This document shows positions 10,400-20,853 of a stretch of 21,568 bases of DNA, piece after piece. Under the pieces are notes generated by a model. That model was not told the origin of the DNA and made no database searches. It was given only the letters and a program-made list of their open reading frames with translations. The stretch lies in the IMG/VR virus record IMGVR_UViG_3300008450_000540, positions 1 through 21,568 of that record; one strand, given 5' to 3'. The position numbers and the translations under genes are program-made. Origin of the DNA: a virus. Position 1 is the stretch's first letter; every line of letters starts with the position of its first letter.

Positions 10400-10840
10400 A
10401 TGTGGTTATACGAAAATAAAGTTATAGAAAAAATAGAAGATTTTCCTGAAAATACGTTTGGTTTTGTTTATATTACAACTCACATCCCAAGTGGAATATC
10501 TTATATAGGTAAAAAATCACTTTACCATAACATTAAGAAAAAACTTACTAAAAAAGAATTAGCAGAACAATCGGGTCCTGGGCGTAAATCAGCCACTAAA
10601 ATCGTTTCAAAAGAATCGGATTGGAAAACGTATTATGGTTCTGCTAAACCAATATTAGGTTTGTTGAAGGAAAATAAACACGAAGAATTTAAACGTGAAA
10701 TAATAAAAACAGTCACTAGTAAAAAATTATTAACTTACTATGAATGTAAATACTTATTTCATTATAATGTGTTAGAACATCCAGTTGAATATTTCAACGA
10801 TAATATTTTAGGTAAATTTTACTCTAAAGACTTTTTATAG
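10400..10840 (+). CDS. GIY-YIG-like endonuclease, 146 residues
   Basis: The two signature strands appear as GFVY (21-24) and YIGKKS (35-40), spaced as in the GIY-YIG fold. The later candidates for catalytic residues are Arg99 in FKREII, Glu115 in YYECKY, and Asn133 or Asn135 in YFNDNI. The middle has SGPGR and ESDWKTYYGS, which I recall from small phage nucleases of the Seg/homing type. There is no separate DNA-binding domain, so it is a minimal nuclease. It may cut DNA in recombination, repair or host DNA breakdown, or be a small homing endonuclease. It lies 2 bases after the ADP-ribosyltransferase-like gene and before the primase/nuclease pair. The first motif is GFVY rather than GIY, so activity should be tested rather than assumed. 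Confidence 0.6.
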   Translation: MWLYENKVIEKIEDFPENTFGFVYITTHIPSGISYIGKKSLYHNIKKKLTKKELAEQSGPGRKSATKIVSKESDWKTYYGSAKPILGLLKENKHEEFKREIIKTVTSKKLLTYYECKYLFHYNVLEHPVEYFNDNILGKFYSKDFL

Positions 10841-12667: not shown

Positions 12668-13423
12668 ATGATTAAACTTACTGAGTTATTGCGTGAAGTT
12701 ATGGGTTCGCCTAAAGCTATATTTTTAGCAGGTCCTGCTGGTAGTGGTAAATCATATATCACTAAACAACTATTACCTAGTAATTTTACTACAATAAATG
12801 TTGATGATACTTATGAGGAATTACTTAAAGCTAGTGGTTTAGGTATGAAACAAAAAGATTTTTCACCTGACGAATTATCACAAGCTGCTAAGTTAATGGG
12901 TCAAGCTCAAAAAGCTACCAAAGAAAAATTCGCTCAATCCTCAGTTGAAAGACAAAATCTAATTATAGATGGTATAGGTGGTGCCTCAAAACCACTATTA
13001 AAGAAAAAACAAGAACTAGAAGCATTAGGTTATGAATGTATGATGTTGATGCTTTATGTATCACCTATTACTTCATTACAACGTAATGCTGATCGTGATC
13101 GTAGTTTAATGCCTAGTATAGTATTACGTACTTGGAGAGATGTGAATCAAAATATTGGGACTTATAAACAAGCGTTTGGAGATAAATTTGTTTTAATAAA
13201 TAATGACCCTAAAGATGCTATTAAAGGATTTTCATTAGAATTAATTAAACCATATCTTCAAGCTTCTAAAGCAGTAGGTAAACCTAAAACACCTGAAGAA
13301 CAAGCAAAATCCGAAGCTGAAAAAAATAAACTAAATGCTGATATTGAAACATTAGTTAAGGAGTTACCTGAATTTGATACTTTAGAAAGCGCTAAATCCA
13401 AAATAAATGAATTTATTAGTTAA
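12668..13423 (+). CDS. P-loop kinase (zeta-toxin/AAA_33-like) with capsid-targeting-like N-terminus
   Basis: A Walker A loop, GPAGSGKS, lies at residues 22-29. A Walker B-like strand ending in Asp101 (NLIIDGIGG) follows, then an Arg-rich lid with RNADRDRSLMPS and RTWRDV near 137-155. This is the layout of small-molecule or polynucleotide kinases related to zeta toxin. The first ten residues, MIKLTELLRE, form an amphipathic segment ending in L8-R9-E10, at the same spacing as in the protein starting at 9969. It precedes the kinase fold and is not part of it. The C-terminus (about 205-251) is charged and helical. The end overlaps the next gene by 17 bases. The substrate is unknown: nucleotide, sugar nucleotide or nucleic-acid end are all possible. 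Confidence 0.65.
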   Translation: MIKLTELLREVMGSPKAIFLAGPAGSGKSYITKQLLPSNFTTINVDDTYEELLKASGLGMKQKDFSPDELSQAAKLMGQAQKATKEKFAQSSVERQNLIIDGIGGASKPLLKKKQELEALGYECMMLMLYVSPITSLQRNADRDRSLMPSIVLRTWRDVNQNIGTYKQAFGDKFVLINNDPKDAIKGFSLELIKPYLQASKAVGKPKTPEEQAKSEAEKNKLNADIETLVKELPEFDTLESAKSKINEFIS

Positions 13424-14849
13424 AGAACTTATACAACCCCTACTTGAAGAAACTACTAAAACAGTAGCAATATTCCCAGGCAAATTTAAACCACCTCACA
13501 AAGGTCACTTTGAGGTAGCTAAAAATTTACTTGATAAAGCAGATGAAATAATCATCGCTATTTCACCAGTTGTTGTAGACGGTATTACACCTCAACAAAG
13601 TAAAGCAGTTTGGGAAATGTATAATACATTATTAGACAATAAGTTAAAAATAGAAATAGTAGATAAATCTCCTGTAAAATATACATTAGATACAATTAAA
13701 GAAAATCCAAATATTAATTTTATTCCTGTATTTGGTAAAGGTGAAGAAGATAGATATAAATCACTTACTGGTAAACCAAATGTTAAAATATATGATGGTG
13801 GAACAGTTGAAGAATTAAATGCTAGAGATTTTAGAAAAATGCTAGCAACGGGCCAAGATTTTGACAAATTTTTACCTGTAGGAATAAATAAAGATGATTT
13901 TTTAAATGTATTTTCAAGTGATATCCAAGAAGATATGTCTCAATCAGATCTTGCTTCGATTGAAAAATATGCAGATAAGGAATTAGCACCTATAGATGTT
14001 GATTTTACTAAACATTTCTTTGATAGATTAAACGATCCTAGAAATATTAAACCAATTTCACCAGCTGAACTTATTGGATTTTTTAAACGTTTAGCTCGTA
14101 AGAAAAATGAATTAAATAATTTCATTACCAAATATAGAGAAGTAGTAGCATCGGATAATAGAACTAATATTAATATCCCATTAGTCAGTATGTCTGATAA
14201 AATTATAGCTAAAACTATAATGCGTAAAAAGGATTTTCAATCTCCTGATCCTAAAATTGAATTAAATGAATTAGAAGATTACGAAATAAAATATTGGGCT
14301 ATACATGCTGATGTGTATGATGCATTAAAAAAAGATCCTAATAAAATATATAATTTTTTAAAAACCAAATTAACTGGTGAGCGACTTAAAGCATTAGAAT
14401 ACTTTTATAATGAGTATTACCTAAAACCAGAAAAATTAATGGAAAATTGTGGTTGTATGCATACTCAACAACCTATAGACTTCAGAAGTGCTTTAGCGTC
14501 ATTAACTAAATATATGATGGATCAAGGTTTAAATATTGCACCTTTACCTAAAGTAAAAATCATAAGCAACGATATAGAAAACGCTGAAAACATTTTAGGT
14601 AAGACAGCGTATTATGATCCGAACAATTGTTCAATCACTTTATATACATTAAATCGTCATCCAAAAGATGTGTTACGTTCATATTCACACGAAATGATCC
14701 ATCGTATTCAAGATAACGATGGTAGATTAAATAATGTTAACACTACTAATACTAATGAGGATTCTAACTTACAAGAGTTGGAAAAAGAAGCGTACCTCAA
14801 CGGAAACATAATTTTTAGAAATTGGGAGGATTCAATTAAAAATGTATAA
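13407..14849 (+). CDS. Nucleotidyltransferase fused to HExxH metallopeptidase-like domain
   Basis: Residues 1-15 (MNLLVKELIQPLLEE) are a tag-like amphipathic segment with (L)xE. Residues 19-190 form a cytidylyltransferase-like nucleotidyltransferase with FPGKFKPPHKGH, where His31 and His34 are the HxGH motif. The distal ISSTxxR-type motif is replaced by NARDFRKML (138-146). A middle region has HFFDRLNDPRN (203-213) and KTIMRKKDF (about 272-280), which I associate with a recurrent phage domain of unknown role. The C-terminus has SHEMIH, with His428, Glu429 and His432, and a candidate third ligand Glu461 in ELEKEAY: a zinc metallopeptidase signature. The fold of the front half matches NMN adenylyltransferase and relatives, but the substrate is not determined. 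The multi-domain build is unusual. It overlaps both neighbours, so it is co-expressed with the kinase and the HAD enzyme. Confidence 0.65.
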   Translation: MNLLVKELIQPLLEETTKTVAIFPGKFKPPHKGHFEVAKNLLDKADEIIIAISPVVVDGITPQQSKAVWEMYNTLLDNKLKIEIVDKSPVKYTLDTIKENPNINFIPVFGKGEEDRYKSLTGKPNVKIYDGGTVEELNARDFRKMLATGQDFDKFLPVGINKDDFLNVFSSDIQEDMSQSDLASIEKYADKELAPIDVDFTKHFFDRLNDPRNIKPISPAELIGFFKRLARKKNELNNFITKYREVVASDNRTNINIPLVSMSDKIIAKTIMRKKDFQSPDPKIELNELEDYEIKYWAIHADVYDALKKDPNKIYNFLKTKLTGERLKALEYFYNEYYLKPEKLMENCGCMHTQQPIDFRSALASLTKYMMDQGLNIAPLPKVKIISNDIENAENILGKTAYYDPNNCSITLYTLNRHPKDVLRSYSHEMIHRIQDNDGRLNNVNTTNTNEDSNLQELEKEAYLNGNIIFRNWEDSIKNV

Positions 14850-15372
14850 ACTAACAGATTTATATAAACAATTAAAAGAGGAAGAACAAGCAGCTCAAGT
14901 TTCACAATATAAAATTTATTGTGATATGGATGGTGTGTTATGTGATTTTGACAGACGATTTGAACAATTTGGAGATATGTCTCCTAAAGCATATGGAGCT
15001 AAATATGGTACTAAAAAGTTTTGGGAATTAATAGACAACACAGGTGAACAATTTTGGTCTAAAATGCCTTGGATGCCTGATGGTAAGCAATTATGGACTT
15101 ATATATCAAAATATAAACCTGCTTTACTATCAGCACCATCTATGAATTATTCATCTCGCTATGGAAAAAAATTATGGGTACAAGAAAACATACCTGGTAC
15201 TAAATTAATTTTAGCAAAACGTGAAAATAAAAAAGACTATGCTGATAGAAAATCAATACTTATCGACGATAGAGCCGATAATATTAATGATTGGAATGCG
15301 GCTGGTGGTATTGGAATATTATTTACATCAACATCTCAAACAATAAACGAATTAAAAGAAATAGGATTATGA
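14842..15372 (+). CDS. HAD-family 5'(3')-deoxyribonucleotidase-like phosphatase
   Basis: Motif I is CDMDGVLCDFD with nucleophile Asp28 and Asp30. Motif II is Ser97 in ALLSAPS. Motif III/IV has a Lys-rich LILAKRENKKDY followed by ILIDDRADN with Asp142 and Asp143. This matches the NT5C-type HAD nucleotidases, which remove phosphate from deoxynucleoside monophosphates; a nucleic-acid end phosphatase is the main alternative. The protein is preceded by a 15-residue tag, MYKLTDLYKQLKEEE, which the HAD core does not need. The gene overlaps the upstream gene by 8 bases. A GGGAGG at 14824-14829 lies 12 bases before the ATG and is the only Shine-Dalgarno-like stretch I noticed, perhaps by chance. The end overlaps the next start. 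Confidence 0.72.
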   Translation: MYKLTDLYKQLKEEEQAAQVSQYKIYCDMDGVLCDFDRRFEQFGDMSPKAYGAKYGTKKFWELIDNTGEQFWSKMPWMPDGKQLWTYISKYKPALLSAPSMNYSSRYGKKLWVQENIPGTKLILAKRENKKDYADRKSILIDDRADNINDWNAAGGIGILFTSTSQTINELKEIGL

Positions 15373-19944: not shown

Positions 19945-20853
19945 ATGAATAAAAATACTGCTCAACGTATATCTCATCTTATTAAAGAAGTGTTATCAAA
20001 ACCACTTAAAGAAGACAAATGTAATTGTGGGTGTCACTCATGTGATAACGTAGGTAATAAAGGACCTGTACTTAACGAAAGTTTAGGTACTAAAATTATT
20101 ATGACCGAAAACATGCAATACCATGTTACAAATAAATTACCAATTACAGAAAATACATTCAGATACGGATCAGAAGCATTTTTAAATTTATGGGCTGAAG
20201 CACGTTATTTACATGAACGTAATGCTATACATTTAAATGATGACGATAAAGAATTAGTTGTTGAAACCGATTTAGGCGAATATGGTATGTTTGAAGGTAC
20301 AAAAGTACCTTTAGATTTATTAATGGAAGAAGATTTTGATAGTACATTAGGTAGTGAAGAAGAAGCTAGAGATACAACTAGTATTTTATATATTCCTTAT
20401 ATTGATTTATTAGTTCAAATTGCTAAAGACTATGGTGAAGAAACTGAACTTTATAATGAGGTAGAAAATGCTATTGTCTTTAATAGAACAGAAAAAATAC
20501 CTAACATCTTAAGAAATTACGAAGTAGATAAACAATATGCTGGATTCACTAGAATGAATGAAACAGATAAAAAGAAAACACCAGCATTAGGTAAACCAAA
20601 ACGTGGTGGATCTAAGAAATTTTATGTATATGTAAAAGATCCTAGAACTAAACGTATTAAAAAAGTATCATTTGGAATGGCGGGTGGTGGATTACGTGCT
20701 AAATTAAATAATCCAAAAGCACGTCAAGCATTTGCTAAACGTCATAATTGTGCTCAAAAGACAGATAGAACAAAAGCATCATATTGGAGTTGTAGACTTC
20801 CAAGATATGCTAAATTATTAGGATTTAAAACAACATTCTCAGGATACTGGTAA
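19945..20853 (+). CDS. Cysteine-rich basic phage protein with tag-like N-terminus
   Basis: The first 24 residues form two amphipathic stretches with I13-K14-E15 and L21-K22-E23. They are followed at once by a tight cluster Cys26, Cys28, Cys30, His31, Cys33 (CNCGCHSC), a likely metal site. The middle (about 45-200) is acidic and helical, with GSEAFLNLWAEARYLHERNAIHL. The C-terminus (about 215-302) is very basic: KKFYVYVKDPRTKRIKKVSFG, then RHNC (266-269) and SYWSCR (279-284), a motif I recognise from many uncultured phage proteins. The basic Cys/His C-terminus suggests nucleic-acid binding with metal support. An LNES site occurs near residue 47. Cargo or head-internal function is inferred from the tag only. 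Confidence 0.62.
   Translation: MNKNTAQRISHLIKEVLSKPLKEDKCNCGCHSCDNVGNKGPVLNESLGTKIIMTENMQYHVTNKLPITENTFRYGSEAFLNLWAEARYLHERNAIHLNDDDKELVVETDLGEYGMFEGTKVPLDLLMEEDFDSTLGSEEEARDTTSILYIPYIDLLVQIAKDYGEETELYNEVENAIVFNRTEKIPNILRNYEVDKQYAGFTRMNETDKKKTPALGKPKRGGSKKFYVYVKDPRTKRIKKVSFGMAGGGLRAKLNNPKARQAFAKRHNCAQKTDRTKASYWSCRLPRYAKLLGFKTTFSGYW

What the first reader, a model, noticed from the sequence alone, without database searches (positions are those of the whole stretch)
13407..14849. Nucleotidyltransferase-metallopeptidase fusion with a tag
One 480-residue protein appears to hold an HxGH nucleotidyltransferase (H31-H34), a middle phage domain, and a C-terminal HEMIH (428-432) with a candidate third ligand at Glu461. 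The ISSTxxR-type second motif of the transferase is altered to NARDFRK. I know of no characterised enzyme with this architecture. It could modify and cleave host targets, or the peptidase could release the transferase domain after entry.
Basis: partly seen in the sequence, partly recalled or inferred. Interest (0 to 1): 0.65.

Follow-up and report, generated by a model that had tools for sequence, protein, structure and literature searches.

The report
Modular phage effector with peptidase domain
This gene from a T4-like phage encodes a chain of enzyme modules (a nucleotide-transferring enzyme, two unknown segments and a zinc-peptidase-like domain) joined by short sequences that look like the cut sites of the phage's own head protease, which suggests a toolkit packed into the virus head, cut apart there and injected into the host.

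Summary
In detail: one 480-aa ORF carries HxGH (H31/H34) and HEMIH (428-432). The C-terminal domain is a genuine zincin-type metallopeptidase fold: H428, E429, H432 and E459 are invariant in 120 distinct homologues, and the AlphaFold model (pLDDT 89) has the minimal zincin core, with IrrE/PprI and selecase as best PDB matches. The third ligand is more likely E459 than E461. The NARDFRK change is local; most relatives keep the canonical S/N-G/A-T-x-x-R.

The architecture is one of 22 shuffled combinations in phages with T4-type prohead protease (gp21). The peptidase also occurs alone. Modules the window encodes as separate neighbouring genes are fused elsewhere.

The most interesting result is not in the finding: module junctions carry L/I-x-E, the cut motif of T4 gp21, in 102 of 119 deduplicated junctions (shuffles 58±5), four times denser than inside modules. 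In this protein all four junctions carry it. The N-terminal tag resembles T4 capsid-targeting sequences.

Best reading: a polyvalent effector, packaged in the head and cut apart by the prohead protease, with the zincin as one injected cargo enzyme. Packaging, cleavage and both enzyme activities are inferred, not shown. New variant of a known kind (polyvalent proteins).

The parts
13407..13451 (+). N-terminal tag MNLLVKELIQPLLEE (aa 1-15) ending in an L-x-E site (E14/E15); capsid-targeting-like
   Evidence: Present on NT-, PEP-, LINK- and NT5C-headed relatives with different modules behind it; T4 CTS precedent
13452..13931 (+). HxGH nucleotidyltransferase domain (NT, aa 16-175)
   Evidence: Pfam PF01467 and NCBIfam TIGR00125 above cut-off; AlphaFold pLDDT about 90-97 over most of it; Foldseek hits NadM, NMNAT, PPAT
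13497..13508 (+). HKGH motif (H31-H34)
   Evidence: H34 invariant in 46 homologues; H31 is H or T, an accepted variant of the motif
13818..13835 (+). NARDFR, second transferase motif with T140 changed to R; R143 kept
   Evidence: Column 140: T in 39, S in 4, R in 3 of 46; R143 invariant
13923..13931 (+). IQE175, predicted cut site between NT and MID
   Evidence: Junction statistics; low-pLDDT block
13932..14261 (+). Middle domain (MID, aa 176-285)
   Evidence: PHROG 23027/14518, unknown function; separate tagged gene in phage immuto; weak RegB similarity in relatives
14262..14270 (+). LNE288, predicted cut site between MID and LINK
14271..14444 (+). LINK segment (aa 289-346), a separable helical module, ending in predicted cut site LME346
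   Evidence: Occurs as tag-LINK-PEP without NT or MID in L007 and L015
14445..14846 (+). Zincin-like metallopeptidase domain (PEP, aa 347-480), also found as a stand-alone 128-149 aa protein
   Evidence: AlphaFold pLDDT 89, pTM 0.83, helix-3 strands-HEMIH helix-helix; top 14 PDB fold hits are zincins
14688..14702 (+). HEMIH (428-432): two Zn ligands and catalytic Glu
   Evidence: Invariant histidines and E429 in 120 of 120
14781..14783 (+). Glu459, best candidate third Zn ligand
   Evidence: 120 of 120 conserved, against 117 of 120 for E461
12668..13423 (+). Upstream tagged P-loop kinase-like gene (zeta-toxin/PNK-like), overlapping the start of the finding by 17 bp
   Evidence: Pfam Zeta_toxin 33.1 bits above cut-off; tag MIKLTELLREV
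14842..15372 (+). Downstream tagged NT5C-like nucleotidase gene; the same domain is fused to the PEP protein in L087, L056, L132 and others
   Evidence: Pfam NT5C above cut-off, PHROG 2643 E 3e-29; fusions

Best explanation
The protein is a polyvalent effector precursor of a T4-like phage, probably of Bacteroidota hosts. An N-terminal targeting tag brings it into the prohead core; the gp21-type prohead protease then cuts after L/I-x-E in the tag and between the modules, giving separate NMNAT/PPAT-like nucleotidyltransferase, MID, LINK and zincin proteins that stay in the head and are injected with the DNA. The zincin is then a cargo enzyme that acts on host (or phage) proteins in the new cell, and the transferase acts on nucleotide cofactors or a host target. 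Shown here: module content, zincin fold and invariant active site, shuffling and fusion/fission of modules, L/I-x-E enrichment at junctions, gp21 homologues in the same phages. Inferred: packaging, cleavage, injection, catalytic activity and substrates.
For: Zincin fold and conservation. Twenty-two architectures around the same peptidase, including stand-alone copies, and Rosetta-stone fusion of the window's neighbouring NT5C gene. L.E is the top of about 2000 two-residue motifs enriched at PEP junctions (p 8e-10); 102 of 119 deduplicated junctions carry [LI]xE against 58 +/- 5 in shuffles, 3.26 against 0.77 sites per 100 aa inside modules. All four junctions of this protein carry it, with two further sites inside folded parts. 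T4 gp21 cuts after L/I-x-E, the first 10 residues of IPIII suffice for packaging, and Alt is cut at both ends (PMC9026906, PMC5694885). Peptidase_S77 (gp21) is found in 10 of 14 partial contigs bearing the peptidase and in phage immuto; these gp21 homologues have L-x-E near their termini. In immuto the genes between tail and terminase genes have [LI]xE in the first 24 aa in 16 of 21 cases, against 31 of 134 elsewhere (p 4e-6).
Against: No virion proteomics or cleavage data. L/I-x-E is a short motif and these proteins are rich in L, K, N and E; homologous junctions are not independent even after deduplication. Proteins headed by the Pol-beta-type module (MSGxxGxNRI start) have no such site in the first 15 aa, and a few stand-alone peptidases (L047, S-SRM01) lack a tag. 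Some sites fall inside folded parts (IKE99, LQE457).
Confidence: 0.62

Rival explanations
1. The HExxH domain itself processes the chain, in cis or trans, before packaging, in the head or after entry (the mechanism proposed for polyvalent-protein metallopeptidases by Iyer et al. 2017, and the reader's idea).
For: The zincin is the most constant module and proposed autoproteolysis has precedents such as P1 DdrB (PMC5512222); it sits next to cut-site-like junctions.
Against: The junction motif equals the known specificity of T4 gp21; it is also on tags of proteins without the zincin and at the MID junction of phiM12 and the NT5C tag of Melnitz, phages in which the zincin was not found; 22 ORFs have the zincin alone with no partner to release.
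Confidence: 0.2
2. The protein stays uncut in the infected cell as an ordinary multidomain enzyme; the L/I-x-E sites are just flexible linkers of a helical, Lys/Glu-rich kind and the tag is a generic amphipathic helix.
For: The motif is short and linkers in these phages are rich in L, K, N and E.
Against: Shuffling junctions with their own composition gives 58 +/- 5, not 102; L.E is the most enriched pair motif without prior choice; tags cluster in one gene region next to head genes.
Confidence: 0.15
3. NAD salvage enzyme: the transferase makes NAD from NMN to counter NAD-depleting defences, with the other domains as accessories. This concerns the role of one module and can be true together with the best explanation.
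For: Best fold matches are NadM and NMNAT; immuto annotators called it NadR; phages do carry NadM/NadR for this purpose (PMC9503650).
Against: All NCBIfam NMNAT and PPAT equivalog scores are far below their cut-offs (for example 30.7 against 181 bits); PPAT models score about as well as NMNAT ones; no NAMPT-type partner gene is named in the immuto annotation.
Confidence: 0.3

Closest known systems
Polyvalent proteins of phages and conjugative elements (Iyer et al. 2017, PMC5512222)
   Same: Multidomain proteins combining unrelated enzymatic domains, with zincin-like peptidase as the hub domain; Pol-beta NTase and ART modules also occur here
   Different: Found in gp21-bearing T4-like phages; HxGH transferase and this zincin family with its C-terminal RNWEDSIKN motif; junctions carry prohead-protease-type sites; only weak, below-threshold match to Pfam MPTase-PolyVal
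T4 internal proteins and Alt with capsid-targeting sequence
   Same: Short N-terminal tag ending in L/I-x-E, presumed gp21 processing, Alt also cut near its C terminus
   Different: T4 examples are single effectors with only terminal propeptides removed; here several modules are strung together with a site at each junction
Minimal zincins (selecase, IrrE/PprI, MPTase-PolyVal, M91, DUF6782)
   Same: Helix, three strands, HExxH helix, second helix with Glu
   Different: No Pfam model passes its cut-off for this domain; family-specific RHPKDxxRS before the HExxH motif and RNWEDSIKN at the end
NMNAT/PPAT/cytidylyltransferase superfamily (HxGH)
   Same: G25, KPP, H34 and R143 motifs, Rossmann-type fold
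   Different: H31 often T; GGFKPPTKGH signature; scores far below equivalog cut-offs

Membership tests
Zincin metallopeptidase superfamily | HExxH with two invariant His and Glu | tested here: met
   120 of 120
Zincin metallopeptidase superfamily | Third ligand Glu on the following helix | tested here: met
   E459 120/120 on helix 453-478; ligand geometry not measured
Zincin metallopeptidase superfamily | Core fold: helix, three-stranded sheet, HExxH helix, second helix | tested here: met
   top 14 PDB fold hits are all zincins although E-values are only 0.02-0.4; viral library hits include IrrE-like and M48-named proteins
Zincin metallopeptidase superfamily | Zinc-dependent proteolysis | not testable with these tools
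   Needs protein
HxGH nucleotidyltransferase superfamily | (H/T)xGH and S/T-x-x-R motifs in the Rossmann-like fold | tested here: met
   the T of the second motif is R in this copy
NMN adenylyltransferase (NadM/NadR/NMNAT) | Equivalog model score above cut-off | tested here: not met
   30.7 against 181.2 bits for TIGR01527, others likewise
Polyvalent proteins | Several unrelated enzymatic domains in one chain with variable combinations | tested here: met
   22 architectures; ART-like, Pol-beta NTase, PNK-like, NT5C modules
Polyvalent proteins | Delivered into the host with the invading DNA | not testable with these tools
   Only indirect: tag, gene position next to head genes
gp21-processed head proteins | L/I-x-E at the processing positions | tested here: met
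   102 of 119 junctions, all four in this protein
gp21-processed head proteins | gp21-type protease in the same phages | tested here: met
   10 of 14 contigs, all fragments, and immuto; the window itself is a 21.6 kb fragment
gp21-processed head proteins | Cleavage and presence in virions | not testable with these tools
   No proteomics found for these phages
MPTase-PolyVal (Pfam PF18818) | Gathering score reached | tested here: not met
   8 of 39 members match weakly, best E 0.014

The most novel reading that the evidence does not exclude
A widespread group of T4-like phages builds effector polyproteins: shuffled enzyme modules strung on one capsid-targeting tag, separated by prohead-protease sites, so that one packaging event delivers several independent effectors in fixed ratio after cleavage inside the prohead.
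Probability: 0.55. Interest if true: 0.78.

Novelty: new variant of a known kind. Interest (0 to 1): 0.6.

Why it matters
It would join two separate ideas, polyvalent injected proteins and T4 head-protein processing, into one testable mechanism, and would give a sequence rule (tag plus L/I-x-E junctions) for recognising head-packaged effectors in hundreds of uncultured aquatic phages. It also shifts the role of the zincin from the presumed in-chain processor to a likely injected effector. An isolate (Flavobacterium phage immuto) is available for direct proof.

Tried and rejected
PDB sequence profile search with the peptidase gave nothing, so the fold search was used. My first label 'kinase' for the ~285-aa N-terminal module of L001-type fusions was wrong; it is a Pol-beta-type NTase module. 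No paper describing immuto virion proteins was found. A BECR/RegB-type RNase fold for MID was considered: only two sub-threshold RegB matches and a mostly helical, partly low-confidence model, so left open. Paper searches for a prior description of prohead-protease-processed polyvalent proteins in T4-like phages found none in the held library, which is not proof of absence.

Full report
What is there. The ORF at 13407-14849 (+) is open for 480 residues in a 21,568-base virus fragment with T4-like neighbours. Its parts are a 15-residue N-terminal tag, an HxGH nucleotidyltransferase domain (NT), a middle domain of unknown function (MID), a short helical segment (LINK) and a C-terminal HExxH domain (PEP). 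Pfam and NCBIfam support NT above their cut-offs. PHROGs names MID only as a family of unknown function. No Pfam model passes its cut-off for PEP.

Is the peptidase real? Yes, as a fold with an intact active site. Eighty IMG/VR loci from the first scan all carry PEP, and the second scan reported at least 489 relatives. In 120 distinct sequences, including cyanophages B23 and S-SRM01 and a pelagiphage-like contig, H428, E429, H432 and E459 are invariant; E461 is Q in three. The AlphaFold model of PEP alone (pLDDT 89, pTM 0.83) has helix, three strands, the HEMIH helix and a second helix carrying E459 and E461, the order given for polyvalent-protein zincins in PMC5512222. The 14 best PDB matches are zincins, namely IrrE/PprI, selecase and a mycobacterial regulator that I take to contain an IrrE-type domain, at modest E-values of 0.02-0.4. 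Pfam's most frequent weak matches are also mostly zincins: DUF6782, M91, MPTase-PolyVal, M76. pN/pS is 0.13-0.25. Catalysis itself is not shown.

The transferase. G25, K28-P29-P30, H34 and R143 are invariant in 46 relatives; H31 is H or T. The second motif is S/N-G/A-T-x-x-R in most; the window's R140 is shared with its closest relative only, with one further R in a diverged copy. Fold matches are NadM, NMNAT and PPAT, but all equivalog scores are far below cut-off, so the substrate is open and the public name NMNAT is not established.

Architecture. With module queries from the window and from phage immuto, 166 PEP-bearing ORFs fall into 22 architectures: PEP alone (22 ORFs, many of them 128-149 aa with a tag), NT-PEP (41), POLB-NT-PEP, NT-MID-ZIN2-PEP (where ZIN2 is a second HExxH domain, HEIEH), NT-PEP-NT5C and so on. 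Some of these loci overlap between the two scans, so counts are of ORFs, not of independent phages. The NT5C nucleotidase, a separate tagged gene directly downstream in the window, is the C-terminal module of a 1117-aa protein in L087. MID is fused here but a separate tagged gene (190) in immuto. PEP of L001 is 91% identical to the window's while its NT is 54%, as expected from module exchange.

The junctions. Around PEP, the pair motif L.E is the most enriched of about 2000 tested (22 of 35 against 75 of 511 windows, p 8e-10). Over all junctions and N-terminal tags of PEP-bearing proteins, 102 of 119 deduplicated ones carry [LI]xE; shuffling each junction gives 58 +/- 5 with a maximum of 74 in 1000 trials; density is 3.26 per 100 aa against 0.77 inside modules. 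In the window protein there are seven such sites: E14/E15 after the tag, E175 between NT and MID, E288 between MID and LINK, E346 between LINK and PEP, and only E99 and E457 inside modules. Caveat: homologous junctions share ancestry, so these numbers overstate independence.

Why this points to the prohead protease. T4 gp21 cuts after L/I-x-E; the first ten residues of IPIII suffice for packaging; Alt is cut at ITE-6 and LTE-619 (PMC9026906, PMC5694885). A gp21 homologue (Peptidase_S77) is present in 10 of 14 long PEP-bearing contigs and in immuto (E 9e-35), and the gp21 homologues read carry L-x-E near the N terminus and most also near the C terminus. In immuto, [LI]xE lies in the first 24 residues of 16 of 21 proteins encoded between the tail and terminase genes, against 31 of 134 elsewhere (p 4e-6); a few of the 16 (for example the exonuclease) are probably chance. 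S-SRM01's cytidyltransferase, next to its stand-alone PEP gene, begins MKNFHQFITEA, which resembles the T4 internal-protein tag as I remember it. Sites of this kind also precede MID in phiM12 and head the NT5C-like gene of Melnitz, where PEP was not found.

Mechanism. Best reading: tag-directed entry into the prohead, cutting by gp21 at the tag and junctions, retention of the separate enzymes in the head, injection, and action in the host, with PEP as one cargo enzyme. The main rival is processing by PEP, as proposed for polyvalent proteins. The stand-alone PEP genes and the match of the motif to gp21 favour the first, without excluding the second. Against both: no proteomics, and POLB-headed proteins lack the site at their N terminus.

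Verdict. The finding is real and its peptidase call is correct; the fusion is one instance of a large shuffled family that fits the polyvalent-protein concept. The novel element is the apparent polyprotein layout with prohead-protease-type junctions in T4-like phages.

Noticed in passing
window 9969, 12668, 14842, 15369, 18288, 19945, 20855, 21235 (gene starts): At least eight other window genes begin with a similar amphipathic tag ending in L/I-x-E, whereas the tail, GIY-YIG-like, primase and exonuclease genes do not; a candidate list of co-packaged proteins.
   Followed up: partly
window 14442-14459 (aa 346-351, ENCGCM) and the start of the gene at 19945: A CGC-type cysteine motif follows the predicted cut site directly (LxE-N/D/G/S-CGC-x-H) in many relatives, and a similar LKEDKCNCGCHSC occurs in the gene at 19945. 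Unexplained; possibly metal binding.
   Followed up: no
L081 11164-13887 (aa about 715-905), L087 4258-7611: A second zincin-like domain (HEIEH, often starting LxEGRYD) recurs before or after PEP in dozens of relatives, twice in L087.
   Followed up: partly
L041, L044, L072, L075 linkers before PEP: A zinc-ribbon-like sequence (IICDNCGWHW..DLYICHKCGHDN) is inserted between modules in several proteins.
   Followed up: no
L060 aa 555-596, L068 aa 548-594: HYD1-type ADP-ribosyltransferase-like modules (sub-threshold Pfam matches) sit in the same multidomain proteins.
   Followed up: no
MW353176 100792-101229 and window 10400-10840: The immuto gene annotated NAD synthetase looks homologous (same position, similar start) to the window ORF with a GIY-YIG-like beginning (FGFVYITTHIPSGISYIGKK); the annotation looks wrong.
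   Followed up: no
window 13932-14261 (MID): Relatives of MID give weak, below-cut-off matches to T4 RegB endoribonuclease in two different proteins (L009, immuto 190).
   Followed up: partly
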